Shown: positions 2,245 to 24,395 of the stretch, one piece after another
Layout of the letters: every line of letters starts with the position of its first letter
How positions within the stretch are numbered: position 1 is the stretch's first letter
DNA from: a virus
Length of the DNA: 26,481 nt
Direction: 5' to 3' (one strand)
IMG/VR virus record: IMGVR_UViG_3300009183_000322
Span: 1 to 26,481 of that record
Notes under the pieces: generated by a model
Told to the model about the DNA's origin: nothing
Database searches by the model: none
Seen by the model: only the letters and a program-made list of their open reading frames with translations
Program-made: the position numbers and the translations under genes

Positions 2245-3678
2245 ATGATAATTTTAGGTATTAACGAAACATCCCACGATGCATCTGTGTCTTTAATTGA
2301 CAATAATAAAATATTATTTGCGGGTCATTCAGAAAGATACAGCAAGCAAAAAAATGATTGGTATGTAAACAATGATTTAATTAAAGACGCATTGTCATAT
2401 GGAAAACCAGACTACATAGCCTATTACGAAAAGCCACTTTTAAAAAAAACAAGGCTTGTATTAAATGGTGGCTTGGGAGATTGGAAACCAAAGTTTAATA
2501 TAGAGAACGTTCCAAGGGTATCATTTAAACATCATTATTCTCACGCAGCAGCAGGATATTTTACAAGCACCTTTGATGATGCCGTAATAGTTGTTTTAGA
2601 TTCCATCGGTGAATTTAATACGTCAACAATTTGGACTGGAGAAGGTTCTAAAATAACATTAAAAGAAAAGCACAACTATCCATTTAGTTTTGGTCTATTC
2701 TATTCCGCATTTACACAGTTGATTGGCCTAATGCCAAACCAAGAAGAGTATATTATGATGGGCATGGCAGCGTATGGTGATTCAAAAAAATACTATAAAA
2801 AAGTTAATGACTATTTCCCATCAATAAAAAAACAAAAATATAACTTTCACAAAGGAATTACAGACTGGGGCTGGGTTAAAACAGAACAAGATAAATTTGA
2901 TATTGCTGCAGCAGTGCAGGATGTATATAAAAATAGACTGACTGAGTTTATGCAACACGCACAAAAAATTACTGGCAAATATAATTTAGTCTTTATGGGT
3001 GGGTGCGCTTTAAACTCTTCAGCAAATACAGAGTTGTGGAATATTTTTGACGATATATGGATTATGCCTAATCCTGGAGATGCTGGGTCATCTCTTGGAG
3101 CAGCAGCAGCGCTTTATGGTAAACATTTAAACTGGGAAACTCCATACCTTGGCTATGATTTAGGAGGTAAATATCCAGTCAATGAAATTGTCAAGGGTAT
3201 ATTAAAAGATAAAATTGTAGCGGTAGCAACAGGAAGAGCAGAATACGGACCAAGAGCATTAGGCAATAGAAGTATACTTGCCGACCCAAGAGATCCTAAT
3301 ATAAAAGATAGAGTTAACTTAATAAAGCAACGTGAGCCATTTAGGCCGTTTGCCCCAGTTGTCATGGAAGAATGTGCAGATAAATGGTTTGATATGGATT
3401 TTACTAGTCCATATATGCAGTACACAGTAAAATGTCTTCAGCCAGAAAAGATCCCGTCAGTTGTTCATGCTGATGGAACCTCTAGAGTACAGACAGTTAA
3501 TCGCAACCAACATAGGGATCTTTGGAGAGTTTTAAATAAGTTTTATTTAGAAACTGGTGTGCCAGTTCTATTAAATACAAGTTTAAATATTAAGGGCCAG
3601 CCCTTGCTAAATGATGAAAAAGATATAGAACTTTGGGAAAAAACTTATAATCATAAAATTATAGTAGGTTTAATATGA
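2245..3678 (+). CDS. NodU/CmcH-type carbamoyltransferase
   Basis: A 477-residue enzyme that probably transfers a carbamoyl group from carbamoyl phosphate, via carbamoyl-adenylate, onto a hydroxyl, usually of a sugar. The N-terminal Kae1-like domain has LGINETSHDAS (His11) and the metal-binding HHYSHAAAG motif (His96, His97, His100), then LDSIGE. MGGCALNSS follows mid-protein. The C-terminal carbamoyltransferase domain has GRAEYGPRALGNRS, REPFRPFAPVV and LLNTSLNIKGQP. It is shorter than the usual 550-600 residues. It leads a run of overlapping genes and ends in an ATGA overlap with the next gene. The target is probably a phage-made glycan or a phage structural protein. Confidence 0.92.
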   Translation: MIILGINETSHDASVSLIDNNKILFAGHSERYSKQKNDWYVNNDLIKDALSYGKPDYIAYYEKPLLKKTRLVLNGGLGDWKPKFNIENVPRVSFKHHYSHAAAGYFTSTFDDAVIVVLDSIGEFNTSTIWTGEGSKITLKEKHNYPFSFGLFYSAFTQLIGLMPNQEEYIMMGMAAYGDSKKYYKKVNDYFPSIKKQKYNFHKGITDWGWVKTEQDKFDIAAAVQDVYKNRLTEFMQHAQKITGKYNLVFMGGCALNSSANTELWNIFDDIWIMPNPGDAGSSLGAAAALYGKHLNWETPYLGYDLGGKYPVNEIVKGILKDKIVAVATGRAEYGPRALGNRSILADPRDPNIKDRVNLIKQREPFRPFAPVVMEECADKWFDMDFTSPYMQYTVKCLQPEKIPSVVHADGTSRVQTVNRNQHRDLWRVLNKFYLETGVPVLLNTSLNIKGQPLLNDEKDIELWEKTYNHKIIVGLI

Positions 3679-4313
3679 ATAATTTTGATTTTAATATTTG
3701 GGAAAATTCTACAAAAAAATCATTTGTTTTTATTAATAAAAGATCTAATATAAAGAATGACTGGTTAGACTATGATGAAATTTTAAAAACAGAGTATAAA
3801 GATTCAATTATAAAGCCAATCAATAAATATATGTATAAATTATCGTCACCACCGAGATTGGTTTCGATTATAGACAACACAGTTACGTTGTGTCAAGAAA
3901 ACTTTGCAGAGGTTTTTTTGCTAGAAAAAAATAGTAAACTAGATGCCATAGAAAAAATACACATGAGACAGTTTTATAAATATGGAGAAAAAACTATAGA
4001 AAATAAAGAATGTTTTAGCGAAATTTTTAGATGGGCAATGACCTGGTTTATTGATTGCGATGGGATTGAAATCGACATTTCCAGACCAGAGGACTCTCCA
4101 TTTTATTTTTATGAGGAAAAATATATTTCTAGCAAAGAAAATTCAGATATTGTTGATCCAAAAATGCTACTTTTTCAATTTAAAAACAAAGGCTCACACA
4201 TGAAGCCAGACGGGTATGGTAGAATTAAAAGAGGGCAACCAGCCTACTTCATTACTTTTACCGCAGAGAATAATGTTGTAGCAAGAATTAAGGAGTTTTA
4301 TGGCAAAGATTAA
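3675..4313 (+). CDS. Unknown protein in the modification operon
   Basis: A 212-residue soluble protein that I do not recognise. Its ATG overlaps the carbamoyltransferase stop (ATGA) and its end overlaps the next start by 14 nt, so it is firmly in the operon. Visible features are a Trp-rich segment (FRWAMTWFIDCDGIEID, about residues 117-133), an acidic loop (SRPEDSPFYFYEE) and a C-terminal YGRIKRGQPAYFITF stretch. There is no signal peptide or membrane segment. Context suggests a role in sugar or protein decoration, or an accessory subunit of the carbamoyltransferase. Confidence 0.85.
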   Translation: MNNFDFNIWENSTKKSFVFINKRSNIKNDWLDYDEILKTEYKDSIIKPINKYMYKLSSPPRLVSIIDNTVTLCQENFAEVFLLEKNSKLDAIEKIHMRQFYKYGEKTIENKECFSEIFRWAMTWFIDCDGIEIDISRPEDSPFYFYEEKYISSKENSDIVDPKMLLFQFKNKGSHMKPDGYGRIKRGQPAYFITFTAENNVVARIKEFYGKD

Positions 4314-5028
4314 ATTTTATCCTTTTAGTAAAGAGACTCAGGCAATGTCTCCTGAGCCAACTCCCGCATCTAAAAATATTCCAGAGTGGTACAAAAAACA
4401 ACCAGCATACGGCACATCAGATGAAGAACAAATGTTAAAAACTGGAGGAAGTGCATCAACAGTAAAAAGATGCATGCCAATATTTGATATTATTAATAGT
4501 GGATATATTATATACATTCCTTGTGATATATATGTGGATGCAACAGATCCAAATAAACTAAAGTGGTCTGTGCCATCTTTTGCTAGTCAGGTAAAGCGAG
4601 AGTTAGTTTCTTCTCATGCTCCAGAGCAGGTATCTCACTACCCACTAAATGAAAAACAATATCATAAAGAAATTTTTAGAATTATGCCATTTTGGTCTGT
4701 TGGAACAGAAAAAGGCTATAGCACTTTATTTACTCATCCTTTTCACTCAGATGAATTACCATTTAGAACATTTGGTGGAGTAGTAGATACAGATAAATTC
4801 ATTACAGATGGTCACTTTTCAATACAACTAGAAAAAGGATTTAAAGGAGTTTTAGAGAGAGGAACTCCACTAGTTCAGGTCATTCCATTTAAAAGAGATA
4901 GTTATTCTATGGAGTTAGTTGATGTTGAGGAATCTAACAAAATTTTATTGTCTCAAAGACTTTTAATAAGAAGTAAATTTAAAAACTTTTATAGAAATAA
5001 TTTAAGGGTTGCAAAAGATTACAAATGA
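4300..5028 (+). CDS. Uncharacterised phage family protein, copy 1
   Basis: A 242-residue protein behind a good Shine-Dalgarno (AAGGAG, 4290-4295). It is a paralogue of the next gene. Both share an N-terminal PxPAxxxIPEWYKxxxxYG motif, a K-K/R-C-M/I-P-x-F-D-x-x-x-S-G-Y segment, a central GYSxLxTHPxxxxxLPFxTxxGVVDxD block and a late KGTPxxQxxPFKRDSxxxE block. The dense Trp, Tyr and Pro motifs suggest a conserved fold with a binding cleft. It resembles an unnamed family common in phages (perhaps DUF6065, from memory only). No function is known to me. Confidence 0.88.
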   Translation: MAKIKFYPFSKETQAMSPEPTPASKNIPEWYKKQPAYGTSDEEQMLKTGGSASTVKRCMPIFDIINSGYIIYIPCDIYVDATDPNKLKWSVPSFASQVKRELVSSHAPEQVSHYPLNEKQYHKEIFRIMPFWSVGTEKGYSTLFTHPFHSDELPFRTFGGVVDTDKFITDGHFSIQLEKGFKGVLERGTPLVQVIPFKRDSYSMELVDVEESNKILLSQRLLIRSKFKNFYRNNLRVAKDYK

Positions 5029-5753
5029 TTAAAAATAAAAAACTAACCTTTATTCCAACAATTCAAGACTTTGAAAATAAACTAATACCTCCTGTGCCAG
5101 CAATCTCTCAAGTACCAGAGTGGTATAAAAGTTTATCTTTATACGGGCCAACAAATAGTGAAAAAAATTTAAATCCAATAAACCATGTAGGGACAGATGG
5201 AACTTTTGTTGCAACAAAAAAATGTATTCCTTTTTTTGACGCACTAACATCTGGCTATTATTATTTATTAGAAGACGACCTTCATGTAAGTCAAAATGAG
5301 CACGGGTATCCAAAATTAACATGGAATGGAGATGTTATGTTAATTGACAAGAGACCCACCCTTGAGGTTCCAATCCCAGGAGATTGTCACCCAGTACATT
5401 TTGGAGTAAGGATGAATTGGTTTTATAGAACACCTCCAGGATACTCTGTATTAGTAACACACCCAATGAATAGGTATGATCTACCATTTTATACTCTTTC
5501 TGGAGTTGTAGACTCAGACTCTTGGGGCTTGCCAGTATTTTTTTCTTTTTTTGTAAAAAGAAACTTTATAGGAACTATTCCAAAAGGTACGCCAGTTATG
5601 CAATTTTTTCCTTTTAAAAGAGACTCTTGGGAAATAGAGGTTGACGATAGCAATGAGATTATTGAAGAAGAAGAATTTAAAGCAGAAAATAGAAGAACAA
5701 TAGTTACTGGATATTATAAAAAAGATATTTGGAAAAGGAAAAATTTTAAATAA
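5025..5753 (+). CDS. Uncharacterised phage family protein, copy 2
   Basis: A 242-residue paralogue of the preceding gene, with an ATGA overlap to it. It keeps VPEWYKSLSLYG, KKCIPFFDALTSGYYY, GYSVLVTHPMNRYDLPFYT and GTPVMQFFPFKRDSWE. It differs in the middle (about residues 85-125). Equal length and conserved blocks suggest tandem duplication followed by specialisation, perhaps as a heterodimer. It lies between the carbamoyltransferase and the glycosyltransferase. Confidence 0.88.
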   Translation: MIKNKKLTFIPTIQDFENKLIPPVPAISQVPEWYKSLSLYGPTNSEKNLNPINHVGTDGTFVATKKCIPFFDALTSGYYYLLEDDLHVSQNEHGYPKLTWNGDVMLIDKRPTLEVPIPGDCHPVHFGVRMNWFYRTPPGYSVLVTHPMNRYDLPFYTLSGVVDSDSWGLPVFFSFFVKRNFIGTIPKGTPVMQFFPFKRDSWEIEVDDSNEIIEEEEFKAENRRTIVTGYYKKDIWKRKNFK

Positions 5754-6686
5754 ATGGTAGACAATACAAATACTAAAAAAGAATGGGATAGCATTAATGT
5801 TGTAATGTATTCTTATAAAACTAAAGATGCTATAGATACATTGTCAGATTTAATGAAAAAAGTATCTGGCGATGTTTTTATTTTTATTCACTGGCATGAT
5901 CAAAATGCAATAGATAGATCAAAACTTCTTGAAGACCTGGTTAATTCCTATGAAAACTGTAACGGAGACTATTTCCATATTAACTGGGACAATAATGAAG
6001 GCGCTGTTGATTATAAAGATAATAGATTAAAGGCAACTGTTGGGGGCAAATATCACATGACGATAACGCCAGGAACAACATTATTTCAAAATTGGGATAC
6101 TGAGTTTATAAATTATGTAAAAGATAAAAATGTTGTTATTTCTGGAAATAAACAAGTAGCGCTTGATAACTCAAAAATTTTTTATGTAAACAAAACATTT
6201 AGCAATATATCAAACTATACAGTTACTAACTATATAGATAGAAATTTAATATTTGGAAACGTGATTATGATGAAAAATAGTAAACTTGGAGAGTATAATT
6301 TTCCAGGATGGCTAAAATATCATGGAGAAGAAGAAGTTTTATCTTTACAATATTGCAAAGATGACATAGAAATAGTTGCTGCTCCAACAAACCTGGTATA
6401 TATAAGTGAATATAGCACTCTTACCGATTTTAATTATTATGTACCATTTTCTAAATATCACAATTACAATCAGGTCATAAAATTATTTAAAACAGGAGCA
6501 AATGAGATGATAGGTAATCTAGGAAAAGATTTTGTAAAAAAGTTTTATGAAAAAAATAATTTTAATTTTTCAAGTTTGCATTGGTTGCCATTTTATGCAA
6601 ATGATGTTTCTTATAAAATTAGCGAGACATCTTACGATAGATTGGGCGGAAGAAGATTTATTAAACAATATAAAGAGGTGGAATAG
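5754..6686 (+). CDS. GT60-like (Skp1 GlcNAc-transferase type) glycosyltransferase
   Basis: A 310-residue GT-A-like glycosyltransferase. It begins with INVVMYSYKTKDAIDTLSDL and SGDVFIFIHWHDQ, like the first Rossmann half of the family. The KYHMTITPGTTLFQNWDTEFI region aligns with the family block whose consensus is roughly YxLQIDSHMRFxxxWD. The later YHGEEEVLSLQYCKD segment matches the GEE catalytic region. The metal-binding D-S-H of GT60 enzymes reads T-P-G here, so metal use or activity may differ. GT60 enzymes add GlcNAc to hydroxyproline in eukaryotic Skp1. Its stop lies one base before the start of a prolyl-hydroxylase-like oxygenase. The family call is by motif memory only. Confidence 0.68.
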   Translation: MVDNTNTKKEWDSINVVMYSYKTKDAIDTLSDLMKKVSGDVFIFIHWHDQNAIDRSKLLEDLVNSYENCNGDYFHINWDNNEGAVDYKDNRLKATVGGKYHMTITPGTTLFQNWDTEFINYVKDKNVVISGNKQVALDNSKIFYVNKTFSNISNYTVTNYIDRNLIFGNVIMMKNSKLGEYNFPGWLKYHGEEEVLSLQYCKDDIEIVAAPTNLVYISEYSTLTDFNYYVPFSKYHNYNQVIKLFKTGANEMIGNLGKDFVKKFYEKNNFNFSSLHWLPFYANDVSYKISETSYDRLGGRRFIKQYKEVE

Positions 6687-6687
6687 T

Positions 6688-7236
6688 ATGCATAGAATTT
6701 CTGTTATTGAAGATTTTATTCAAGAAGAAGATGCTTTAAAATTAATTTCAGAGATGAACAATCCCTCTGAAACAAACCCTTATCCAGAGTATTATAAAAA
6801 AAGATATGGAGGTACTGCGCTTCCTTATAACGATAGTGTAATGAATATTTTAATTAAGTACGGGCACAAAACTAACAACATTCATAAATCATTAAATGGA
6901 TATTTAAACAATATATATGTATTTAAGGCATTCGGATCCCACTGGACCGCTGGAACTAAAGGTGATTTACATATAGACGCCCAAGGCCCAGAGCCATTTA
7001 TTGAGTGGAGCACTATAATGTATCTTAATGATCCCTCAGAATATCAAGGTGGAGAAATTTATTTCCCTAATCAAGGATTTACCTATAAACCTAAAAAATT
7101 TTCTGCTGTGTTTTTCCCTAGCGCTGGAACAGAATATATTCATGGAATAACAGAGATTGAGTCTGGACATAGGTATACTGCTCTTTATATGCATACATCG
7201 TTAAAACAATATTCAGATCCAGATTTTTTAAAATAA
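6688..7236 (+). CDS. Fe(II)/2OG oxygenase, prolyl-4-hydroxylase type (1)
   Basis: A 182-residue oxygenase. The start at 6688 has a Shine-Dalgarno (AAAGAGGTGG) and follows the previous stop. A longer in-frame start at 6547 lies inside the upstream gene and is rejected. The double-stranded beta-helix motifs are present: iron ligands His95 and Asp97 (LHID), the conserved YQGGEIYFP turn, distal His152 (EYIHGITE) and the 2OG-binding Arg162 (GHRYTAL). Members hydroxylate prolines or other residues with O2 and 2-oxoglutarate. It directly follows the GT60-like gene, so it may create the hydroxyl which that enzyme glycosylates. Confidence 0.92.
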   Translation: MHRISVIEDFIQEEDALKLISEMNNPSETNPYPEYYKKRYGGTALPYNDSVMNILIKYGHKTNNIHKSLNGYLNNIYVFKAFGSHWTAGTKGDLHIDAQGPEPFIEWSTIMYLNDPSEYQGGEIYFPNQGFTYKPKKFSAVFFPSAGTEYIHGITEIESGHRYTALYMHTSLKQYSDPDFLK

Positions 7237-7430: not shown

Positions 7431-7504
7431 GCACCAGTAGCCAAGTTGGTTAAGGCCCCGAACTCATAATTCGGATATCGTAGGTTCAAGTCCTACCTAG
7501 TGTA
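7431..7504 (+). tRNA. tRNA with CAT anticodon (Met or Ile2)
   Basis: A 74-nt cloverleaf with a weak acceptor arm, GCACCAG with CTAGTGT: one G-U pair at the end and a C-A mismatch at pair 5. The D arm is GCC/GGC with loop containing TTGGTTA. The anticodon stem CCGAA/TTCGG encloses CTCATAA, so the anticodon is CAT. The T arm is GTAGG/CCTAC with loop TTCAAGT. It could be elongator Met, or Ile2 if the C is lysidinylated. The 3' end overlaps, antisense, the stop of the gene at 7497-8192. Confidence 0.85.
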
Positions 7505-8192
7505 CATCTAATACATCGTAATGTGGATTTTCCAGCAACCCTGGTGTTGGAAAACTGTTAACTAATAAATTTTTTCTTAAAGATATAAAAGACTTATCCT
7601 CAGTAGAAATAAAATTAGCATCTGTCGATACTTTGCTTTTTTCAGATCCATATATTTTTACATCTGTTATTTTTTCCCCACCAATATTTGCAAAATTGCC
7701 ATATGTAGATCTAGGGAAATATGCGATGTCTAAGGATTCTTTAAGTTTATTTTTATTCATTATCATTGGAACGTGTATGTCGTAGTCAATGGGATCTTTT
7801 ATTCCAACAGAAACCAATTGTTTATATGTTAATTCTAAAAGTTTAATATATTTTGATGCCATGCCAAGTTCTTTGTACCTTTCAATTTTATCTATAAGAA
7901 GGCCACCGTGAAGTGTTGGGACTATTGATATTTTATTTAAAGCAAAAAAATCATCATTCATTAAAACAAAATTATTTGATATTTCTAAATGCTCTGATGC
8001 CACACGAATACAATTTCTAATATTTTCAAATTTACCGCCAACATCTTTTACATATATTAAATCTCCTATGTACCATTTTGGCCTATTCCCTATAAGCCAA
8101 ACACGACCTTCAGGCATATTTTTTTCAATTGATCTCAAAGAATAACGTAATTCTTCATTTTCCCCGTCACGGCAAATATAAACATAATCCAT
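7497..8192 (-). CDS. Stealth-like sugar-phosphotransferase / glycosyltransferase
   Basis: A 231-residue protein resembling the conserved regions of Stealth (capsular polysaccharide phosphotransferase) proteins. The N-terminus has ELRYSLRSIEKNMPEGRVWL, then IGNRPKW. In the middle is NFVLMNDDFFA (residues 74-84), like the NDD-x-F motif of the family. DIHVPMIMNK follows, like the late Stealth region with its conserved His. It is shorter than typical family members (over 300 residues). Such enzymes transfer hexose-1-phosphate in phosphate-linked polysaccharides. The start is leaderless, 6 nt after a TATACT box at 8204-8199. The last codons overlap the third tRNA. Confidence 0.75.
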   Translation of the reverse strand: MDYVYICRDGENEELRYSLRSIEKNMPEGRVWLIGNRPKWYIGDLIYVKDVGGKFENIRNCIRVASEHLEISNNFVLMNDDFFALNKISIVPTLHGGLLIDKIERYKELGMASKYIKLLELTYKQLVSVGIKDPIDYDIHVPMIMNKNKLKESLDIAYFPRSTYGNFANIGGEKITDVKIYGSEKSKVSTDANFISTEDKSFISLRKNLLVNSFPTPGLLENPHYDVLDVH

Positions 8193-8225: not shown

Positions 8226-10142
8226 ATGGCAAAAATATTAGTTGTAAGCGCTAACTTACCAGATTGGTCAAAAAATAGTGGGGGAAAAGAAAGAACTGCA
8301 ACCTTGCTTGAGGCCTTAACTGATCATGAAGTTACGTTCTTGTCCTTTAATTGGAACAATGAACTAATTAATAAAAAGATAGGTAATAATATTACTTATT
8401 TACAGCCACAGATAGGATCTGCTATGCTTAGACGTAGAAAAAATCTTATTTCTGATTTTGCTAGTGCTAATCATGATGCTGTTTTTGAAATATTAAATGA
8501 TGATTTAAACATTTTTACTAAAGTTTTAGCAGATTTGTCAAAAGAACATGACATTTTAATTGTTGACCATTATTCAGTATCACCTCTTGTTAAAAACATT
8601 AAAAATATTCCAATCATATATAACTCACATAATGCAGAACTAGAACTAGCCAAGCAGGTTCATATCAATAATGCAGAACTTCTTGCTATAGTTGAAAACA
8701 TGGAAACCCGCATTTTAAATCAAGCAAAAGAAATTACATATTGTTCAAAATTAGACTTTATAAAATTACAAAACTACTACGGTAAAGATATTTCTGGAAC
8801 ATACATCCCCAATGGTACAACAATTCAAAATAAGATTGATTACAAAAATAGACTTAATTCTAGAGATATTATTTTTGTAGGTAGTGGACATCCACCTAAT
8901 AAGGTTGCAGCAAGAGCAGTAGTTAGTTTTGCTAAATCATTGCCAGAATTTAATTTTATTATTATCGGTGGATGTGGTAATGGAATTAAGGCTGGGAGCA
9001 TTTCAAGCAATGTTCATATTACTGGTCATGTAGATGATGAGACCTTGGATAAATATTTTAGAACATCATTTGCATTTATAAACCCTATGTCTAGTGGATC
9101 TGGAACTCATTTAAAAATGATGAAGGCATTAGGATATGGGATTCCAATAATAACATCAACTATAGGGGCAAGAGGATTCTCTAGTCAAGAAGTGGAAGAG
9201 TCAATGCTTATTGCAGATAGCGAGGATGATTTTTATGCAAAAATTAAAATCCTTAAAAATGAAAGAACATACAAAGATTTATGTGATAATTCATATAAGC
9301 ACTCACAAACCTATAACTGGGATAAAATTAAAAAAAACTATTCAGACTTTATTGATAACTGTATAGGTAAATATGTTAAAAATAAAATAGCAAAAGTTGA
9401 ACTAAAAAAAGTAAAAGAAAAAATCTTAATATGCTCTATTGCTAGGAATGATGAAGATTTTTATGTTAATTACTACAATAGGCTTAGGGCAATGGTTGAT
9501 TTTTTCCCAGAATATGAATTCTATTTGTCGTTATACGAAAATGATTCAACAGACTCAACAAAAAATTTAATATTTCAACAAGATTATTCAATGTTTGCTG
9601 GTGTATCTATTGTTTCAGAAAAAATTAATACACGGTTTTATGGTTCAACAAAAGATGAAGATAGAGTAAAGAATTTATCGGTAGCAAGAAATAAGGCCCT
9701 TACTGCTAACAACTTCTTAGAAAATGTTGACTATGTCTTGATAATAGATATTGACGTTGAATTTAAAATGCCTGCAGTGGAAAAAGTTTTAAATTTTAAA
9801 AAACTAGAGCCAGACTTTGATGTTGTTGCTTCTGCCACTTTAAGAAAAAGATCCCTTTATGATCACTGGGCAACAAGAGAGCAGGCTGAGTATGATCGTG
9901 CAATTGGAGAAAATTTTGAAATATACAGGAAATTGCCCTATAAAAAATACTACTCTGTCTCTAGTGGATTTTGCCTATATAAGGCCAAAGCCTTTAGGGC
10001 TGGGGTAAGGTGGGGGTATATTAATACAGTGACTGGCAATCCAGATTGCGAAATGGTGGTTGTTTGCCAAGAATTTAGCAAAATGGGATATAATAATATC
10101 TATATGATGCATCAAGCAGAAATGCAACATAATCATAAATAA
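8226..10142 (+). CDS. Two-domain glycosyltransferase (GT4-like plus GT69-like)
   Basis: A 638-residue fusion. Residues 1-370 are a GT-B enzyme of the GT4 type: GGKERTATLLEAL near the N-terminus, IIYNSHNAELELAK, IPNGT, FVGSGHPPNK, and the donor-site segment NPMSSGSGTHLKMMKALGYG. From about residue 397 a second domain begins with KILICSIARNDEDFY. It carries YENDSTDSTKNLI, LSVARNKAL and IIDIDVEF, which resemble the CAP59-like (GT69) mannosyltransferase fold with a D-x-D motif. One protein may thus add two successive sugars. It is leaderless and divergent from the Stealth-like gene, so the pair probably acts on one glycan. Confidence 0.85.
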   Translation: MAKILVVSANLPDWSKNSGGKERTATLLEALTDHEVTFLSFNWNNELINKKIGNNITYLQPQIGSAMLRRRKNLISDFASANHDAVFEILNDDLNIFTKVLADLSKEHDILIVDHYSVSPLVKNIKNIPIIYNSHNAELELAKQVHINNAELLAIVENMETRILNQAKEITYCSKLDFIKLQNYYGKDISGTYIPNGTTIQNKIDYKNRLNSRDIIFVGSGHPPNKVAARAVVSFAKSLPEFNFIIIGGCGNGIKAGSISSNVHITGHVDDETLDKYFRTSFAFINPMSSGSGTHLKMMKALGYGIPIITSTIGARGFSSQEVEESMLIADSEDDFYAKIKILKNERTYKDLCDNSYKHSQTYNWDKIKKNYSDFIDNCIGKYVKNKIAKVELKKVKEKILICSIARNDEDFYVNYYNRLRAMVDFFPEYEFYLSLYENDSTDSTKNLIFQQDYSMFAGVSIVSEKINTRFYGSTKDEDRVKNLSVARNKALTANNFLENVDYVLIIDIDVEFKMPAVEKVLNFKKLEPDFDVVASATLRKRSLYDHWATREQAEYDRAIGENFEIYRKLPYKKYYSVSSGFCLYKAKAFRAGVRWGYINTVTGNPDCEMVVVCQEFSKMGYNNIYMMHQAEMQHNHK

Positions 10143-10726: not shown

Positions 10727-11356
10727 ATGAAAAGTCCAATACCTGGAATTGCAATTTACAGCAATGTAATTAGCAAAGATTTAGATGTTATTAATAGGCT
10801 AAGTACCATTCTTGGCAATAGCCAAACCTATAAATGGTCTGAGTCAACTGTGGGATATTCTGAAAAGATGACTGACTTTAGAGACTGCTTTGATTTCAAG
10901 TTTAGAAAATCAACGCTTGAAAAAGATACAGGGAAAGAGTCTTTAGAATTACAAAAAATTTGGCAAGAAATTTATGATAGACAAAGTATTGCAGTTAATG
11001 AATATTGCACTACATTTTCTGTTGGAGAATTAAAATATTGGGAAGCATTTAACTTTCTTAAATATGAAAAAGGTCAGCATTTCCAGTATCACCACGATCA
11101 CTCTGAAAACTATAATTGTACAATATCATTAGTTCAATATTTAAATGATGATTACGAAGGCGGAGAGTTAAGTTTTGGTGGATGGAATTATACATACAAG
11201 CCAGTTGCTGGAGATCTTGTGATATTTCCATCTAACTATATGTATACTCATAGGGCAATGCCAGTAACAAGCGGTACTAAATATGCGCTTGCCACAATGC
11301 TAGATTATAGTGATAAGTATCACTCTCCAGAAATACATCAAAATAAACAATACTAA
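10727..11356 (+). CDS. Fe(II)/2OG oxygenase, prolyl-4-hydroxylase type (2)
   Basis: A 209-residue oxygenase. The iron ligands are His122 and Asp124 in the unusual run YHHDHS, then VQYLNDDYEGGELSF and distal His175 in YTHRAMP. The residue that usually binds 2-oxoglutarate (Arg) is Lys185 in GTKYAL, as in some family members. It has its own promoter and no overlap with neighbours. The substrate is unknown. Confidence 0.92.
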   Translation: MKSPIPGIAIYSNVISKDLDVINRLSTILGNSQTYKWSESTVGYSEKMTDFRDCFDFKFRKSTLEKDTGKESLELQKIWQEIYDRQSIAVNEYCTTFSVGELKYWEAFNFLKYEKGQHFQYHHDHSENYNCTISLVQYLNDDYEGGELSFGGWNYTYKPVAGDLVIFPSNYMYTHRAMPVTSGTKYALATMLDYSDKYHSPEIHQNKQY

Positions 11357-11919: not shown

Positions 11920-12093
11920 ATGGCTAAAAAGAAAAGCAGCGCACTATCTTCTGGAAGCATAGGCTCATCAACTGGTGCTATGGAGTATACTAAAGGGTAT
12001 ATTAGAAGAAAATATAAACGTATGAAAGATGAAGAAAAAAAGTGGAAATCGCTTAATGGTCCAATTACTGTTAGGAAAATAAACAATGAATGA
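11920..12093 (+). CDS. Small basic protein, unknown function
   Basis: A 57-residue protein. The start at 11920 is chosen because it lies 6 nt after a -10 box; the longer frame from 11866 would begin upstream of the promoter. It has a Ser/Gly-rich N-terminal half (SSALSSGSIGSSTG) and a strongly basic helical half (GYIRRKYKRMKDEEKKW). It may bind nucleic acid or be a small structural or regulatory protein. It overlaps the next oxygenase gene by 8 nt. Confidence 0.7.
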   Translation: MAKKKSSALSSGSIGSSTGAMEYTKGYIRRKYKRMKDEEKKWKSLNGPITVRKINNE

Positions 12094-12739
12094 GTTAGTA
12101 AATTACAAAGTTATGGCTCCTGGCTTAGTGTATTATAAGAATGCAATTGCAAATCCAGAGGAAACAATTAAAACCATTGAACTAATACAAAATCGTCTTC
12201 AATCTGGCGTTGAATCAAAAGCAGAGGCCTGGGAAGAATGGAATGGTGCGGATGCAACTCTTGAAAGGTTTTGTTTAAAGTCTTGGATAACAAACCCAAG
12301 AGATATGGAAAAGAATGACCCCTTGTATGAAGAGGTGTCGGTAATATATAAAAATGTTTCCGAGGGTATTGATAAAGTTTTTGATCATTATGCAAATACT
12401 GTATATCCGTCTGCTGGAAAAACTGTAAAATCAACAGAAGGAAGACTCAGCATATTAAAATATTCTAACTCTGGTTATTTGCCTCCTCACCAGGATCAAG
12501 GGGTTAGCAGCAGATTGATCTCTACTGTTGGATATTTAAATGATAATTATAAAGGTGGAGAAATTTATTTTCCGTACCTTGATATAAAAATTAAACCAGA
12601 AGCAGGCAGTGTAGTATTTTTCCCATCAAACTATATATATGTTCACGAAGTTATGCCAATTTCTAATGGAATTAGATATGCTATTCCACAGTGGTATCAT
12701 TCATTGACTACCCAAAGAGACTCGACTGGAGAAGAATAA
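12086..12739 (+). CDS. Fe(II)/2OG oxygenase, prolyl-4-hydroxylase type (3)
   Basis: A 217-residue oxygenase with iron ligands His135 and Asp137 (PPHQDQG), then YLNDNYKGGEIYFP, distal His187 (YVHEVMP) and 2OG-binding Arg197 (GIRYAIP). The N-terminal half (residues 1-115) is a helical, Trp-containing region as in other copies in this window. Its stop overlaps the start of the zinc-ribbon gene (TAATG). Confidence 0.92.
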   Translation: MNELVNYKVMAPGLVYYKNAIANPEETIKTIELIQNRLQSGVESKAEAWEEWNGADATLERFCLKSWITNPRDMEKNDPLYEEVSVIYKNVSEGIDKVFDHYANTVYPSAGKTVKSTEGRLSILKYSNSGYLPPHQDQGVSSRLISTVGYLNDNYKGGEIYFPYLDIKIKPEAGSVVFFPSNYIYVHEVMPISNGIRYAIPQWYHSLTTQRDSTGEE

Positions 12740-13789: not shown

Positions 13790-14386
13790 ATGCATAAATT
13801 TATCGAAAACATTTTTTCAGAAATAGAAATTGATTATTTAAAGGATATTATTAAAGAAAAAGAAAATCTAAAACTTTATACTCTTCGTCCAGAGACTGGA
13901 AGAATTGCTATATCCTTGCCGTATTTAAAGCCAGAAATAATTGACAAAGTGGAAAAAATTATTAAAAATAATTATGGTAAAGATTATAAAGTTAAAGATG
14001 TTGCATTTAATAGATACAAATTAGAGTATGGCCACCCAAAGTTAAAACCACACGTCGACGACGGAAACAGTGAAATTGTATTTGATTATCAAATTGAGGC
14101 AAATAAAAAATGGGATGTTGTTGTTAACGGAAACTCTATAGGCTTAAATGATAACGATGCTGTTATTTTTGAAGGAGAACAAGACGCTCATTGGAGAAAG
14201 CCAATAAGGTTTAACTCAAATGAGTATGTGTCGCTGATTAATTTTAACGCCGTAAGTTCCGACCATTGGAGCAATTTTACAGAAGTAGACCCTATTTCGC
14301 CAACAGTAAGAAAACTTGTCCAAAACAGTGTTTTTAAAGAATGGAAAAATGAGTATTTTTCTGATTTTTATAAGGCTCAACTTTAA
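13790..14386 (+). CDS. Divergent Fe(II)/2OG oxygenase-like protein (4)
   Basis: A 198-residue protein with the iron triad in a different setting. His88 and Asp90 are in LKPHVDDGN and distal His134 is in EQDAHWRKP, preceded by a GLNDNDAVIFEGE segment typical of the late beta strands. The usual YLND-x-x-x-GGE block between them is absent. There is no Arg at the usual place after the distal His; Arg136 or Arg140 could serve. AAGGGA at 13776-13781 is the ribosome binding site. It may act on a different substrate class from the other copies. Confidence 0.75.
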   Translation: MHKFIENIFSEIEIDYLKDIIKEKENLKLYTLRPETGRIAISLPYLKPEIIDKVEKIIKNNYGKDYKVKDVAFNRYKLEYGHPKLKPHVDDGNSEIVFDYQIEANKKWDVVVNGNSIGLNDNDAVIFEGEQDAHWRKPIRFNSNEYVSLINFNAVSSDHWSNFTEVDPISPTVRKLVQNSVFKEWKNEYFSDFYKAQL

Positions 14387-15375: not shown

Positions 15376-15972
15376 ATGATTACAAAAGAAGACGTCTTGT
15401 TTTCTAAAAACAATCAACAGGTTTGTATTGCCAAAGGGTTTACTTCTAATATTTTAAATTGGGAAGATGCATTCAATTTATTTAAAATAGCAAAAAGTAA
15501 GAATTCAATTAACTTCAATTCTTACTGGACGTGTACAATTGACAAATCTGAACACTATACTCGTTTATATAAAGATTTAATTCAAGAAATATCTCCATTA
15601 CACCCTGGCAAAAAAATATCTGCATTTTCAATTATAAATTTAATTACTAGACACAAGAGTAATATTAATAGCAATATTTTTAATAGTTTTAAGGATTATT
15701 TTATTAATTCTAATCCAAATAAAATGCCAAAGGAGGAACTATTGGCAGAATCTTTTATTCCTCCTAAACACACTGACCCCGTAGATGGATTTTTTATTCA
15801 ATTTGAAGGGTCAACATTATGGAGAATTTACTATAAAAATAATGAAAAACAGTATACTTTAAAATCTGGAGATATGATATTTATTCCTAAAAACTTAGAG
15901 CACAGCGTAGAAGCATTAGAGCCAAGATGTTCAGTATCAATATCTTTTGCAGATGCAGAGGACGTCATATGA
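15376..15972 (+). CDS. JmjC/cupin-type Fe(II)/2OG oxygenase-like protein (5)
   Basis: A 198-residue protein with a C-terminal cupin fold. The iron ligands are His132 and Asp134 in PPKHTDPVDGFFIQFEG, and the distal His is His176 in KNLEHSVEA. The segments QFEGSTLWRIY and LKSGDMIFIPKNLEH strongly recall Cupin_4/JmjC enzymes such as RoxA (YcfD) and NO66, which hydroxylate ribosomal proteins. It is shorter than RoxA and lacks its C-terminal extension. Its stop overlaps the next start (ATGA). The substrate is unknown; a ribosomal or phage protein are both possible. Confidence 0.8.
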   Translation: MITKEDVLFSKNNQQVCIAKGFTSNILNWEDAFNLFKIAKSKNSINFNSYWTCTIDKSEHYTRLYKDLIQEISPLHPGKKISAFSIINLITRHKSNINSNIFNSFKDYFINSNPNKMPKEELLAESFIPPKHTDPVDGFFIQFEGSTLWRIYYKNNEKQYTLKSGDMIFIPKNLEHSVEALEPRCSVSISFADAEDVI

Positions 15973-16781: not shown

Positions 16782-17003
16782 ATGTTAGTTAATAAATTAG
16801 AGCACGCAGAAAAAATTGTTAAAAATTTTAAAGATCTTAGATGGGTTGGTTGGGACCTTGTGTCTAGAAAAGAATCTCCAAGTGGGTATTCAAATAAATA
16901 TGGTTCTTTTATTAACGGTAAGTGGGGAATAGACAAGGTTTATAAACTCACGAATAAAGGCTGGCACCTTCCTAACGAATACGGAGATAAAAATGGAAAA
17001 TAA
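16782..17003 (+). CDS. Small protein of unknown function
   Basis: A 73-residue protein with TAAGGAGAA before the ATG. It is rich in Trp, Lys and Gly (DLRWVGWDLV, FINGKWGIDK, NKGWHLPNEYG), a pattern of small phage proteins without known function. It ends 11 nt inside the next gene (oxygenase at 16993). Confidence 0.78.
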   Translation: MLVNKLEHAEKIVKNFKDLRWVGWDLVSRKESPSGYSNKYGSFINGKWGIDKVYKLTNKGWHLPNEYGDKNGK

Positions 17004-17730
17004 TGTTGATTATACGCCATACAAAAACTTTTTTGATATTATTGGAAAAGATAAAAAAAACATAGTAATTATTGAAAATTTTATAGATTCTGAAGATTTA
17101 AAATTAATGAATATATTTTTAAATAAATATAAAGATGATGATGAATTTATGGGTGGAAAAGATCTTAGAGACAAAGTTATTAGAGAAACAGATCCAGATG
17201 TGGCAAATCTGCTTAATAAGTATGAGCATAAAACATTTCAGGTAATTAAAGAAAAGATTATTGACGGGTATGGGGTACCAGTAAAAAGAGTACCATTTAA
17301 CCCTCCACACTTTATCAAGTGGATTCCTGGAATGAACTCTAAAGAGCATGCTGATTGTGAAAAACCAGACGGCACTCCAGCCTGGACTGCAGATTTTTAT
17401 AAATACAATATATCTGTTTTAATGTATCCTAATGACGATTATACTGGAGGAGAAATTATTTTTCCAGAATATGATTTAACATTTAAGCCAACGCCTGGAT
17501 CTTTTATTCTTTTCCCTGGAAATAACAACTATAAGCATATTGTAAGCAGAGTTGATTCTGGAGTTAGATATACAATGCCATCTTGGTATTCTTTTGATAT
17601 AAAAGAAAAAACAAGTGCAAAAAAAATGTATTCTTACCGTGACTCAGTGCAACTATGGGAAGGGTTGCCCGATTTTGATAAAATTGATCCAGTTGGAATT
17701 GACGTAAAAGGTAAAGATTTTGGCAACTAA
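16993..17730 (+). CDS. Fe(II)/2OG oxygenase, prolyl-4-hydroxylase type (6)
   Basis: A 245-residue oxygenase, the longest of the group. The motifs are His119 and Asp121 in KEHADCE, YPNDDYTGGEIIFP, distal His182 in YKHIVSRV and Arg192 in GVRYTMPSW. It has an extra C-terminal extension of about 40 residues with LWEGLPDFDKIDPVG. It overlaps both neighbours, the small Trp-rich gene before and WhiB after, so all three are probably translated together. Confidence 0.92.
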   Translation: MENNVDYTPYKNFFDIIGKDKKNIVIIENFIDSEDLKLMNIFLNKYKDDDEFMGGKDLRDKVIRETDPDVANLLNKYEHKTFQVIKEKIIDGYGVPVKRVPFNPPHFIKWIPGMNSKEHADCEKPDGTPAWTADFYKYNISVLMYPNDDYTGGEIIFPEYDLTFKPTPGSFILFPGNNNYKHIVSRVDSGVRYTMPSWYSFDIKEKTSAKKMYSYRDSVQLWEGLPDFDKIDPVGIDVKGKDFGN

Positions 17731-18248: not shown

Positions 18249-18422
18249 ATGGTTGATTTACGTGGCACACCGACACACATATGTATATGTGGTTCTAAGG
18301 TTTGGAATATTAAGGCAATGTTTGAAGAAGGTGCAATCGCATTATATTTTTTAGATATGAAGTGTGCTGAGTGCGGATCGTTGGCTACTGCACCAACCAA
18401 ACTAGATGGGGGAGAGTTGTAA
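18249..18422 (+). CDS. Small zinc-ribbon protein
   Basis: A 57-residue ORF with ATG two bases after the previous stop and no clear Shine-Dalgarno, so translation is probably coupled. CIC (Cys12, Cys14) and CAEC (Cys39, Cys42) form a plausible zinc site around an alpha/beta core. The next gene follows one base after its stop. Function unknown. Confidence 0.72.
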   Translation: MVDLRGTPTHICICGSKVWNIKAMFEEGAIALYFLDMKCAECGSLATAPTKLDGGEL

Positions 18423-18423
18423 T

Positions 18424-19122
18424 ATGGCAAAAAAACCAGTGCCCCCAATTAATGGAGACCATCATATTAGAGTTAAAAAAGATGAAATTGAATGTGCTTA
18501 TCTTATTGATCAAGAGCAATTAAATGGTGCAAAAATTTATACCAATAGGGAAGAATACATAAAAACACTTCCTAAAGGAATAAAATTTATGGAGGCTGGT
18601 GTTGCCTGGGGATATTACTCTGAGTTAGTTGCACAACAAACAGATCCAGAACTTATACATTTATTTGATTTTTTTCGAGGGGATCTAAAGTGTTGGTCCT
18701 GGAGAGAATTTGGCGAATGTAAATGTGAGCCAATAAAGCATGAATTGTTATATACAAAAAAAACCCAAGTGTCATTCATTGAAGATAAATTTAAAGGTTA
18801 TAAAAATGTTAAACTATTTCAAGGGGATGTCAGATTTACTCTGCCAAAAGTAATAGAAGAATATGACTACCTATACCTAGATACATTAAATGATAGACTG
18901 TCTATTCGACCACTTTTGCATATGGCAGCAGAAAAAACAAAAATAGGATCTATTATAGGATTAAATGATTATATAATTTATGATGGAATCACAGCAGATA
19001 TGCCATATTCCACTCTAAACGTTGTAAACGAGTTTTTGCAGAATAATAAAAATTGGCATGTTGATGGACTGTCCCTACATTCTTTAGGGTTTTATGATAT
19101 TTATATTAAAAGGAGGGGTTAG
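18424..19122 (+). CDS. Class I methyltransferase-like protein (copy 1)
   Basis: A 232-residue protein. GGGGGAGAG upstream supports the ATG at 18424. The fold looks like a SAM-dependent methyltransferase: motif I FMEAGVAWGYYSELVAQ (residues 55-71), acidic residues in LFDFFRGD at the end of strand 2, then DYLYLDTLNDRLS and GSIIGLNDYIIYDG. It resembles Methyltransf_24-type sugar O-methyltransferases. Two paralogues follow at 19138 and 22822. A CWSWREFGECKC motif with Cys and Trp is shared with copy 2 and may define the substrate site. Confidence 0.8.
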   Translation: MAKKPVPPINGDHHIRVKKDEIECAYLIDQEQLNGAKIYTNREEYIKTLPKGIKFMEAGVAWGYYSELVAQQTDPELIHLFDFFRGDLKCWSWREFGECKCEPIKHELLYTKKTQVSFIEDKFKGYKNVKLFQGDVRFTLPKVIEEYDYLYLDTLNDRLSIRPLLHMAAEKTKIGSIIGLNDYIIYDGITADMPYSTLNVVNEFLQNNKNWHVDGLSLHSLGFYDIYIKRRG

Positions 19123-19137
19123 GCGTTATGGTTAATA

Positions 19138-19848
19138 GTGGTGATCAAAATTCCTAGAAAACCAATTGCTGCAGTCATCGGTCCATTTTTGGAAAATTTA
19201 AAGAATGACGAGATAGATTGTGCCTTTTTAATATCACAAGCACAACTTAATGATGCAAAAATTTATACCAATAGAGAAGAATATGTAAAAACATTTTCTA
19301 AAGGAATAAAATTTATGGAAGTAGGTATTGCTTGGGGGTATTATTCTGCCATTGTTGCTGAATTAACCCATCCATCTAAAATGACATTAATAGATCTGTA
19401 CAACAATCAATTGATATGCTGGTCTTGGAGAAAATTTGGCGAGTGCTTATGTGATGGGGTTAAACATACAAGAGATTATACTCCAGAAACACATCAAACA
19501 TATATCAAAGATAAATTTAAAGAATACAATGCTGAAACTATTAAAGGAGACAGTCAAAGCATATTACCTAAAATAACAGAACAAGATTATGACTATATAT
19601 ATTTAGATTTGGTAAATGATAGGAATATAATAAGAAAGGCATTGTGGGATTCTTCAAAATTAGTTAAAATAAATGGAATTATTGGATTAAATGATTATTT
19701 GATTTATGATGGAATTATAGACGATACTCCATACGGGACATTTCAAGTTGTTAATGAATTTTTAAATGATAATAAAAATTGGGTTGTTGATGGATTAGCA
19801 TTACACTCTTTAGGGTTTTATGATATTTATATTAAGAGAAGAGGATAA
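19138..19848 (+). CDS. Class I methyltransferase-like protein (copy 2)
   Basis: A 236-residue paralogue of the preceding gene. FMEVGIAWGYYSAIVAE (residues 59-75), DYIYLDLVNDRN and IGLNDYLIYDGI are conserved, and the C-terminal LGFYDIYIKRRG is identical to copy 1. The start is a GTG at 19138 (a second GTG follows at once); AGGAGG lies rather far upstream (19111), so the start is uncertain. Tandem duplication with divergence suggests two different positions or substrates. Confidence 0.8.
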   Translation: MVIKIPRKPIAAVIGPFLENLKNDEIDCAFLISQAQLNDAKIYTNREEYVKTFSKGIKFMEVGIAWGYYSAIVAELTHPSKMTLIDLYNNQLICWSWRKFGECLCDGVKHTRDYTPETHQTYIKDKFKEYNAETIKGDSQSILPKITEQDYDYIYLDLVNDRNIIRKALWDSSKLVKINGIIGLNDYLIYDGIIDDTPYGTFQVVNEFLNDNKNWVVDGLALHSLGFYDIYIKRRG

Positions 19849-22126: not shown

Positions 22127-22789
22127 TTAGTCTAAAAGTTCATTCTTAAAATCAGTAAAACGTGTCCATAAAGATACTGTGTATCTAGCCGTTCCTTTTG
22201 TTTCTGTAACACCGTGCAAAAAGTGTAAGTTACCTGGAAAAAGAACCATCATTCCTGGCTCAGGGACAATTTCAACATTTTGATCAGGGAAATACAATAC
22301 TCCACCTTCGTAAGTATCATTTAAATATACAAGAATTGAAACGTGACCGCTCCATAAAAATGGCCAATGTTTTTCTTGTTCAATTAAAAGATTTCCAACA
22401 TCATAAATTTCTTCCTGAACATAATCAATAATATCTGTATGTGGCTCTAGATATGATCCAACTGGGTGAACAAAAAAGTCAAGTCCTCTATCTTTATTAA
22501 GTTTTAGACCATACAACTCTTCTGCCTTAGACCTTAGCAATGTATTATATTTATGAAAAAGCACTGATATAGGGTTTCTTTCAATATGTATTGAATCAAC
22601 TACCCAGTGATGTGTTTTTTCTTGTTTGGTATGGAGAACGCTATCTCCAAACTTTACAAACTCTTTAATATCTTCTTCTGGCATAAAATTACGTATGACC
22701 TTGATGGTGTCTGGCCCAGTACCAATAATTTTACTTATATTGTCTATTCTTTTTTCGGGAACATAACTAGAACCAGTTTGATTTGTCAT
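22127..22789 (-). CDS. Fe(II)/2OG oxygenase, prolyl-4-hydroxylase type (7)
   Basis: A 220-residue oxygenase. The start at 22789 is used because it follows a TATAAT box by 6 nt; an ATG at 22804 lies upstream of that box. The motifs are DTIKVIRNFMPEEDI at the N-terminus, His117 and Asp119 in EPHTDI, YLNDTYEGGVLYFP, distal His192 in FLHGVTE and Arg202 in ARYTVSL. It is a close paralogue of the gene at 23751-24395. It converges with the protease gene with only a few bases between them. Confidence 0.92.
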   Translation of the reverse strand: MTNQTGSSYVPEKRIDNISKIIGTGPDTIKVIRNFMPEEDIKEFVKFGDSVLHTKQEKTHHWVVDSIHIERNPISVLFHKYNTLLRSKAEELYGLKLNKDRGLDFFVHPVGSYLEPHTDIIDYVQEEIYDVGNLLIEQEKHWPFLWSGHVSILVYLNDTYEGGVLYFPDQNVEIVPEPGMMVLFPGNLHFLHGVTETKGTARYTVSLWTRFTDFKNELLD

Positions 22790-22795
22790 CTTTCT

Positions 22796-22801
22796 ATTAT
22801 A
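22796..22801 (-). promoter_or_regulatory. -10 box (TATAAT) of a leaderless promoter
   Basis: TATAAT on the minus strand, 6 nt before the ATG at 22789. It is back to back with the -10 box at 22810-22815 with 8 bp between them, the same spacing as at 8199-8218. Confidence 0.6.
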
Positions 22802-22809
22802 CACTATGA

Positions 22810-22821: not shown

Positions 22822-23463
22822 ATGGTATTCATTCTCCCCCTAGCCGAGGGCGCTCCAGACGTGATACCCCAAGAAAAAATAAATGGGGCCAAATTATACT
22901 CTACAAGGTATGAATTTTTAAAAACACTAGAAAAAAATATAAAATATTTAGAGGTTGGTGTGCTGGCTGGAGATTTTTCGGAAGCAGTAATTAAAGAGGT
23001 CAATCCAAGCATTGCTGCATTAGTTGATTCATTTCAATGCAAAGACTACTTTGCCAGTGAGTATGGCGGGGCAAGGTGGGAAATGGTAAGGGGAAACGAG
23101 CACTATAATTTTGTTCGTTCTAGGTTTAAAGGAATTGCCTCTGTAAGGATGTATAGGCAATACTTCGAAACGTTTGTAACGACCAATAGGCAAAAATTCA
23201 ATTTTATTTATTTAGATGCGTGCAATGATTACTTATCCGTTAGAAACTACTTAGAAAGGTCAGCAGAAATTATAGAGGATGGAGGAATTATAGGAATAAA
23301 TGACTACAGCATTTATGAAAATAATACTGAAGCAACAACTAAAGAAAGAATTGAAGTAGTGAAGGCTGTCAATGAATTTATTCGGAATACAGATTGGTAT
23401 GTGCATGCATTTGCACTTAATGACAGTTTAACTTCTGATATTTATATTAAAAAAATAAGTTAA
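22822..23463 (+). CDS. Class I methyltransferase-like protein (copy 3)
   Basis: A 213-residue, more distant paralogue of the two genes at 18424 and 19138. Motif I is YLEVGVLAGDFSEAV (residues 42-56), then ALVDSF, NFIYLDACNDYLS and GGIIGINDYSIYE. The C-terminus SDIYIKKIS corresponds to YDIYIKRRG of the others. The CWSWR-like Cys/Trp insert is missing, replaced by YGGARWEMVRG, so the substrate probably differs. It is leaderless, divergent from oxygenase 7. Confidence 0.78.
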   Translation: MVFILPLAEGAPDVIPQEKINGAKLYSTRYEFLKTLEKNIKYLEVGVLAGDFSEAVIKEVNPSIAALVDSFQCKDYFASEYGGARWEMVRGNEHYNFVRSRFKGIASVRMYRQYFETFVTTNRQKFNFIYLDACNDYLSVRNYLERSAEIIEDGGIIGINDYSIYENNTEATTKERIEVVKAVNEFIRNTDWYVHAFALNDSLTSDIYIKKIS

Positions 23464-23750: not shown

Positions 23751-24395
23751 CTATTCAAAATTTTTTATTTTAAAAAATACAGACAGGGCAAATCTTGTAT
23801 CGCTGGCAGGAAGAATGCCATGTCTATTCCACCAATGCCCAGGAAAAGATATTAACATCCCTGACTCTGGTTTAATTTTTAAATTATGATGTGGGAAAAA
23901 CAACTCTCCGCCATTATAATCATCATTTAAATAAATTAAATTTGATATATGACCGCTCCAATTATATTTTCTATATTTTTCTGGATCAACATCTAAGTTG
24001 TCAGAATGAACTGCAGTAACAAAGTTTTTTGTTCTTCCAGCAAGATAAGAATCAAAGTTTGTCGATGGACTTGCATATTCATCATAGTCTAACTCTATAT
24101 TAAAAAGACTTTCGGACTTTTCTTTGATTTTTTTTATGTATTCTAAAACTTTAGAATCCACAATGGCTGGATTAAATTTTTTATCCTCACCCCTACCATA
24201 CATAAAATTAATTTTATTCATAATTAATTCAATGTCTTTTTTAGGCATAAAGTTTTTAACTATTTTAATTGTATCTGTATCAGAGCCATGTATCTTGGTA
24301 AAACTATCTTGTTCAGGAATAAACTGTTTTGCATAATCATCTCTAGTTAAATCATCTGAAGAATACTCTGGTGACTCAAAGTAATGCTTATCCAT
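23751..24395 (-). CDS. Fe(II)/2OG oxygenase, prolyl-4-hydroxylase type (8)
   Basis: A 214-residue oxygenase, paralogous to the gene at 22127-22789 (shared DTIKIVKNFMPKKDI block). The motifs are His130 and Asp132 in AVHSDN, YLNDDYNGGELFFP, distal His192 in NRHGILP and Arg201 in DTRFALS. Its start overlaps the end of the small gene upstream by 8 nt. It is the last large gene of a minus-strand operon of very small genes. Confidence 0.92.
   Translation of the reverse strand: MDKHYFESPEYSSDDLTRDDYAKQFIPEQDSFTKIHGSDTDTIKIVKNFMPKKDIELIMNKINFMYGRGEDKKFNPAIVDSKVLEYIKKIKEKSESLFNIELDYDEYASPSTNFDSYLAGRTKNFVTAVHSDNLDVDPEKYRKYNWSGHISNLIYLNDDYNGGELFFPHHNLKIKPESGMLISFPGHWWNRHGILPASDTRFALSVFFKIKNFE

What the first reader, a model, noticed from the sequence alone, without database searches (positions are those of the whole stretch)
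5754..7236. GT60-like glycosyltransferase next to a prolyl-4-hydroxylase-like enzyme
In Dictyostelium and Toxoplasma a prolyl-4-hydroxylase hydroxylates Skp1 and a GT60 enzyme then adds GlcNAc to the hydroxyproline. Here a GT60-like gene is followed after 1 nt by a P4H-type oxygenase, so a phage-encoded hydroxyproline glycosylation pathway is a reasonable guess. The target could be a tail, fibre or capsid protein, or a host regulator. The GT60 D-S-H metal motif reads T-P-G here, so chemistry may differ.
Basis: partly seen in the sequence, partly recalled or inferred. Interest (0 to 1): 0.85.

Follow-up and report, generated by a model that had tools for sequence, protein, structure and literature searches.

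The report
Phage hydroxylase and glycosyltransferase gene pair
A family of freshwater phages, probably infecting actinobacteria, keeps a sugar-transferase gene beside a prolyl-hydroxylase-like gene in 78 of 79 relatives examined, so the virus may hydroxylate a protein and then attach a sugar to it; the target and the chemistry remain untested.

Summary
ORF 5754-6686 is a GT-A glycosyltransferase related to GT60. The window protein itself misses the Pfam GT60 profile, but 18 of 33 aligned relatives hit it (best E 1.6e-8). The model (pLDDT 85) matches polypeptide GalNAc-transferases and phage GT60 models. ORF 6688-7236 has an intact Fe(II)/2-oxoglutarate site, and its model's best solved match is the chlorovirus prolyl 4-hydroxylase.

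The window holds at least six such oxygenases, so adjacency alone is weak evidence. The pair is conserved, though: an orthologous oxygenase follows the glycosyltransferase in 78 of 79 viral loci, across GT identities down to about 24-30%. It sits in a compact run with a carbamoyltransferase, an unknown protein and two phrog_7084/DUF6065-like proteins. In a clade where the block has split, the two largest contigs keep both genes, with the GT among tail-fibre genes.

The metal motif reads TPG (NPG in two sequences) in the window's own clade, SD[DN] or GD[DNS] in most relatives, and DSH/DAH in canonical GT60 paralogs. The gene is under purifying selection.

A Skp1-like hydroxylate-then-glycosylate pathway on a phage protein is the best single explanation (about 0.4). 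Proline, GlcNAc and target are not shown. I do not file the GT as GT60 proper.

The parts
5754..6686 (+). GT-A glycosyltransferase, GT60-like, 310 aa; D-x-H site reads T105-P106-G107
   Evidence: ORF; AF2 model; Foldseek; PF11397 in 18/33 relatives; motif census; dN/dS 0.12-0.20
6688..7236 (+). 2OG-Fe(II) oxygenase, prolyl-hydroxylase-like, 182 aa; H95xD97...H152...R162
   Evidence: phrog_61; invariant triad; profile vs PDB; model, vCPH best match; dN/dS 0.02-0.04
5025..5753 (+). phrog_7084 / DUF6065-like protein B, 242 aa, function unknown
   Evidence: lies upstream of the GT in most loci; homologs in haloarchaeal tailed viruses
4300..5028 (+). phrog_7084-like protein A, 242 aa, paralog of B
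   Evidence: synteny
3675..4313 (+). conserved unknown protein, 212 aa, first gene of the five-gene core
   Evidence: no family hit; synteny
2245..3678 (+). Nol/NodU-type O-carbamoyltransferase, 477 aa; upstream of the core here, downstream of the oxygenases in other clades
   Evidence: Pfam 2e-53, phrog_1601; position differs between clades
12086..12739 (+). second 2OG-Fe(II) oxygenase (OX12086), the gene after OX6688 in the non-window clades but moved away here
   Evidence: PF13640 2e-14

Best explanation
The pair works as a hydroxylate-then-glycosylate unit. The prolyl-hydroxylase-like oxygenase (6688-7236) puts a hydroxyl on a peptidyl residue, most plausibly proline. The GT60-like enzyme (5754-6686) then transfers a sugar from a nucleotide-sugar to that new hydroxyl. 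The likeliest target is a phage virion protein of the tail-fibre or adhesin class. Neighbouring enzymes (second oxygenase, carbamoyltransferase) may extend or cap the modification. Shown by computation: both folds, the intact oxygenase site, tight conserved linkage, purifying selection. Inferred: proline, order of reactions, sugar identity, target. In the window's clade the transferase lacks the usual acidic metal site and would have to work without it or bind metal otherwise.
For: Oxygenase directly downstream of the GT in 78 of 79 loci with downstream sequence, in 37 of 38 GT clusters at 95% identity and 16 of 17 at 60%, while the carbamoyltransferase and second oxygenase move. In the clade with separated genes, both large contigs (98 and 116 kb) still carry both genes. 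Closest solved GT folds are polypeptide GalNAc-transferases, with LH3 and ColGalT1 (hydroxylysine glycosylation) also listed. Closest solved oxygenase folds are vCPH, P3H1, B. anthracis P4H and the EF-Tu prolyl hydroxylase. In the split clade the GT block lies between fibre-type genes, and a series of GT loci have a LamG-like protein downstream. Relative G001 encodes a collagen-like tail-fibre-type protein. In Toxoplasma a GT60 enzyme requires the prolyl hydroxylase PhyA (PMC6939170).
Against: No substrate is known, and fold cannot assign substrate residue. The oxygenase misses the Pfam 2OG profiles itself. At least six oxygenases lie in the window, so these phages use this fold for many jobs. 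Conserved synteny covers five genes, not only this pair. In the split clade the GT sits apart from this oxygenase. The window-clade GT lacks the metal-site residues.
Confidence: 0.4

Rival explanations
1. The GT and the oxygenase belong to one pathway but act on separate sites: the GT glycosylates Ser/Thr of a virion protein directly, as GT27 and the trypanosome GT60 enzyme do, while the oxygenase hydroxylates something else.
For: The top fold matches are Ser/Thr GalNAc-transferases. GT60 also contains the Trypanosoma cruzi polypeptide GlcNAc-transferase (PMC6939170). In the split clade the two genes are not adjacent.
Against: Direct adjacency in 78 of 79 loci is tighter than needed for unrelated steps.
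Confidence: 0.25
2. The module decorates a glycan, lipid or small molecule (host surface polysaccharide, or a sugar nucleotide), with the oxygenases, carbamoyltransferase and glycosyltransferases as tailoring enzymes.
For: A NodU/Nol-type carbamoyltransferase, whose known relatives carbamoylate sugars and antibiotics (own knowledge), lies in the same run. Other glycosyltransferases (7497-8192, 8226-10142) and methyltransferase-like genes are close by.
Against: The best fold matches of both enzymes are protein-modifying enzymes. Carbamoyltransferase position is not fixed relative to the pair.
Confidence: 0.2
3. In the window's clade the GT is no longer a catalyst but a binding or scaffold protein, the acidic metal site having decayed to TPG/NPG.
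For: TPG/NPG in all 13 distinct sequences of the clade against an acidic motif in most relatives; faster protein change than the neighbours.
Against: dN/dS 0.12-0.20. D49-Q50, W114-D115, G191-E192-E193-E194 and H236 are kept in the clade. Metal-independent GT-A enzymes exist (own knowledge, e.g. GT14).
Confidence: 0.15

Closest known systems
Skp1 PhyA/Gnt1 pathway of Dictyostelium and Toxoplasma (P4H plus GT60)
   Same: Pairs a prolyl-hydroxylase-fold enzyme with a GT60-related GT-A enzyme; GT60 profile found in relatives of this GT.
   Different: Phage genes in an operon-like run; GT lacks the D-x-H motif; no Skp1 homolog identified here; proline, GlcNAc and dependence untested.
Polypeptide GalNAc-transferases (GT27)
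   Same: Best solved fold matches (E 2.4e-9, TM by query about 0.58); W-D and G-E-E-type motifs in comparable places.
   Different: About 12% identity, no lectin domain, metal motif absent in the window's clade.
Chlorovirus PBCV-1 prolyl 4-hydroxylase (vCPH)
   Same: Best solved fold match of the oxygenase; Fe/2OG residues conserved; virus-encoded.
   Different: About 20% identity, different kind of virus, no peptide substrate known here.
phrog_61 phage 2OG-Fe(II) oxygenases
   Same: The oxygenase matches this family, as do five others in the window.
   Different: This one has a fixed glycosyltransferase neighbour; no specific substrate is assigned to the family by that name.
Lysyl hydroxylase LH3 and ColGalT1 (collagen hydroxylysine glycosylation)
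   Same: Hydroxylation followed by GT-A glycosylation of the new hydroxyl; both GT domains appear among the GT fold matches.
   Different: Different residue and family; lower-ranked matches.

Membership tests
CAZy GT60 (Pfam PF11397) | GT-A fold | tested here: met
   AF2 model pLDDT 85.3; Foldseek to GT-A enzymes
CAZy GT60 (Pfam PF11397) | profile match above the curated cut-off | tested here: not met
   No hit for the window protein; 18 of 33 relatives hit at E up to 10, best 1.6e-8, some above cut-off
CAZy GT60 (Pfam PF11397) | D-x-H metal motif | tested here: not met
   TPG in the window; SD[DN]/GD[DNS] in most relatives; DSH/DAH in canonical paralogs
CAZy GT60 (Pfam PF11397) | alpha-GlcNAc transfer to protein hydroxyproline or Thr | not testable with these tools
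   needs enzyme assay
2OG-Fe(II) oxygenase superfamily (phrog_61) | double-stranded beta-helix with HxD...H and a basic 2OG residue | tested here: met
   H95, D97, H152, R162 invariant in 24 sequences; model and Foldseek; phrog_61 8.4e-15
Prolyl hydroxylases (P4H/P3H type) | closest solved relatives are prolyl hydroxylases | tested here: met
   vCPH, P3H1, bacterial P4H lead the fold list; profile search P3H1 1.1e-5; the PKHD enzyme 3dkq is also near the top
Prolyl hydroxylases (P4H/P3H type) | hydroxylation of peptidyl proline | not testable with these tools
   needs enzyme assay or mass spectrometry
Skp1-type hydroxyproline glycosylation pathway | GT needs prior hydroxylation by the paired oxygenase | tested here: inconclusive
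   Only genetic linkage tested: 78/79 adjacent, both genes in both large contigs of the split clade

The most novel reading that the evidence does not exclude
Phages of actinobacteria carry a complete hydroxyproline glycosylation pathway that decorates their tail or adhesin proteins. It is built from a prolyl hydroxylase and a GT60-like transferase that in one clade has become independent of the metal site. This would be the first hydroxylation-dependent protein glycosylation found in a bacterial virus that I know of.
Probability: 0.25. Interest if true: 0.85.

Novelty: new variant of a known kind. Interest (0 to 1): 0.62.

Why it matters
Phages carry many 2OG-Fe(II) oxygenases resembling prolyl hydroxylases (Phold paper, PMC12774648), and a study of Baltic Sea viruses says how viruses use prolyl 4-hydroxylase 'remains cryptic' (PMC9301287). 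A strictly paired glycosyltransferase gives one such oxygenase a specific, testable role. If true, it would extend hydroxylation-dependent protein glycosylation to bacterial viruses.

Tried and rejected
Chance adjacency: rejected by synteny, although the oxygenase-rich window made it a fair worry. GT as pseudogene: rejected on open frames and dN/dS. Window protein against Pfam, PHROGs, PDB sequences and named phages: no useful hit; only the relatives revealed GT60. GT profile against PDB sequences: nothing. DUF6065-like profile against PDB: only a 0.22 laccase hit. Its haloarchaeal homologs sit by tail-fibre or adhesin genes, with no such GT or oxygenase annotated nearby. Scan of bacterial genomes with the GT alignment could not run. 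PF11397 rang in none of the 14 control genomes, so those controls say nothing. Promoter scan of the run at chance level (33 found, 31.8 expected). Literature: no phage paper with PF11397, none found pairing GT60 with phage hydroxyproline.

Full report
The window is a 26,481-base viral record from IMG/VR. The two genes are as described: 5754-6686 and, 1 nt later, 6688-7236, both on the + strand. They close a run of six genes from 2245 with overlaps or gaps of 0-1 nt: carbamoyltransferase, a conserved unknown, two phrog_7084/DUF6065-like paralogs, the glycosyltransferase and the oxygenase. Three tRNA genes follow.

Glycosyltransferase. The window protein alone finds no Pfam family, no PDB sequence relative and no named phage. 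Relatives from viral contigs changed that. An alignment of 33 shows that 18 members reach Pfam PF11397, the GT60 family (best 1.6e-8), and 9 reach Glycos_transf_2. The AF2 model from that alignment is good (pLDDT 85.3, pTM 0.84). Its best solved matches are polypeptide GalNAc-transferases (2.4e-9), with TarP, WrtF, LH3 and ColGalT1 further down. Among viral models, several phage proteins named 'Glycosyltransferase, GlcNAc' match at 2.5e-13 to 5.7e-10. So the fold is GT-A and the relation to GT60 is real but distant.

Metal motif. In 88 distinct family sequences this site reads TPG or NPG in 13 (the window's clade), SD[DN], GD[DNS] or similar in most others, and DSH or DAH in 9 canonical GT60 paralogs found in the same phage loci (PF11397 confirmed at 1.7e-17 to 7.5e-21 for three from G004). 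A second small group (L063, L065, L085, L103, L104) has also lost the acidic residue. The window's clade keeps D49-Q50, W114-D115, G191-E194 and H236, and the gene is under purifying selection (dN/dS 0.12-0.20). It evolves faster than its neighbours but is not decaying.

Oxygenase. The protein matches phrog_61 and keeps H95, D97, H152 and R162 in all 24 aligned homologs. A profile search finds prolyl 3-hydroxylase 1 at 1.1e-5 and B. anthracis prolyl 4-hydroxylase at 0.0036. The AF2 model (pLDDT 86.8) matches the chlorovirus prolyl 4-hydroxylase best (6.6e-9), then P3H1, a Shewanella PKHD enzyme and bacterial prolyl 4-hydroxylases, including the one that modifies EF-Tu. 'Prolyl-hydroxylase-like' is justified; position 3 or 4, and proline itself, are not settled.

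Is the pairing meaningful? The window contains at least six phrog_61-type oxygenases plus two more candidates, so one adjacency is weak evidence. Conservation is strong evidence. Of 80 GT loci, 79 have sequence downstream, and in 78 the next gene is the OX6688 ortholog, at spacings from overlapping to 29 nt. The exception, L142, has one gene between. Collapsing relatives, 37 of 38 clusters at 95% identity and 16 of 17 at 60% show it. Meanwhile the carbamoyltransferase lies upstream in the window's clade and downstream in others, and a second oxygenase (OX12086) comes and goes. Family labels are best hits to seeds from this window. The 80 loci were found by a GT pattern, so they sample this GT family and not all GT60 genes.

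Exceptions tested. Eight oxygenase loci had no adjacent GT. Searching six of those records plus two truncated ones, GT was found in 4 of 8: both contigs of 98 and 116 kb, and two as pieces cut by a contig end; the other four are fragments of 11.6-33.7 kb. In the two large ones the GT block has moved between fibre-type genes (a tail-fibre-like and an fn3-domain protein upstream, a protein of the same family as the LamG-like one downstream) and is flanked by a different family with H-D-H...GHPH...PR motifs that I read by eye as another oxygenase; it has no Pfam or PHROG match.

Which phages and what target? The major capsid protein of the nearest large relative (G001; GT 63% identical) is about 38% identical to Streptomyces phages, suggesting an actinobacterial host; this is inference. 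G001 also encodes a collagen-like tail-fibre-type protein and G004 a (PEPT)n-rich protein. A series of GT loci have a LamG-like protein a few genes downstream. These make virion adhesins the leading target class, without proof.

Verdict. The hydroxyproline glycosylation reading is the best single explanation at about 0.4. The GT should be called GT60-like, not GT60, because two tested features fail in the window protein. Assay and mass spectrometry are needed to decide.

Noticed in passing
window 10727-11356, 12086-12739, 16993-17730, 22127-22804 (-), 23751-24395 (-): Five further phrog_61-type 2OG-Fe(II) oxygenases, plus a likely one at 13790-14386 and a JmjC/cupin protein at 15376-15972.
   Followed up: partly
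L214:5147-7951 and L166:4707-5998: A repeated family of about 215-aa proteins (HKFF...H-D-H...GHPH...PR) interleaved with the GT in split-clade phages; no Pfam match, oxygenase-like by eye.
   Followed up: partly
L200:10995-11951 (-), L201:7974-8927 (-), L201:14184-15104: One phage contig (G004) carries three canonical GT60 proteins with intact DSH motifs, one directly after the second oxygenase of the module.
   Followed up: partly
window 8226-10142: Two-domain glycosyltransferase: GT-B-type (Glyco_trans_1_4) N-terminus fused to a CAP59-like C-terminus; split into two ORFs in relative L002.
   Followed up: no
L202:849-2180 (-): Proline-rich (PEPT)n protein encoded close to the module in G004; a conceivable prolyl hydroxylase substrate.
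   Followed up: no
L212 and L213: phrog_7084/DUF6065-like homologs in haloarchaeal tailed viruses lie beside tail-fibre, adhesin or concanavalin-like virion genes.
   Followed up: partly
window 18406-19122, 19138-19848, 22822-23463: Three related methyltransferase-like genes, two of them in tandem.
   Followed up: no
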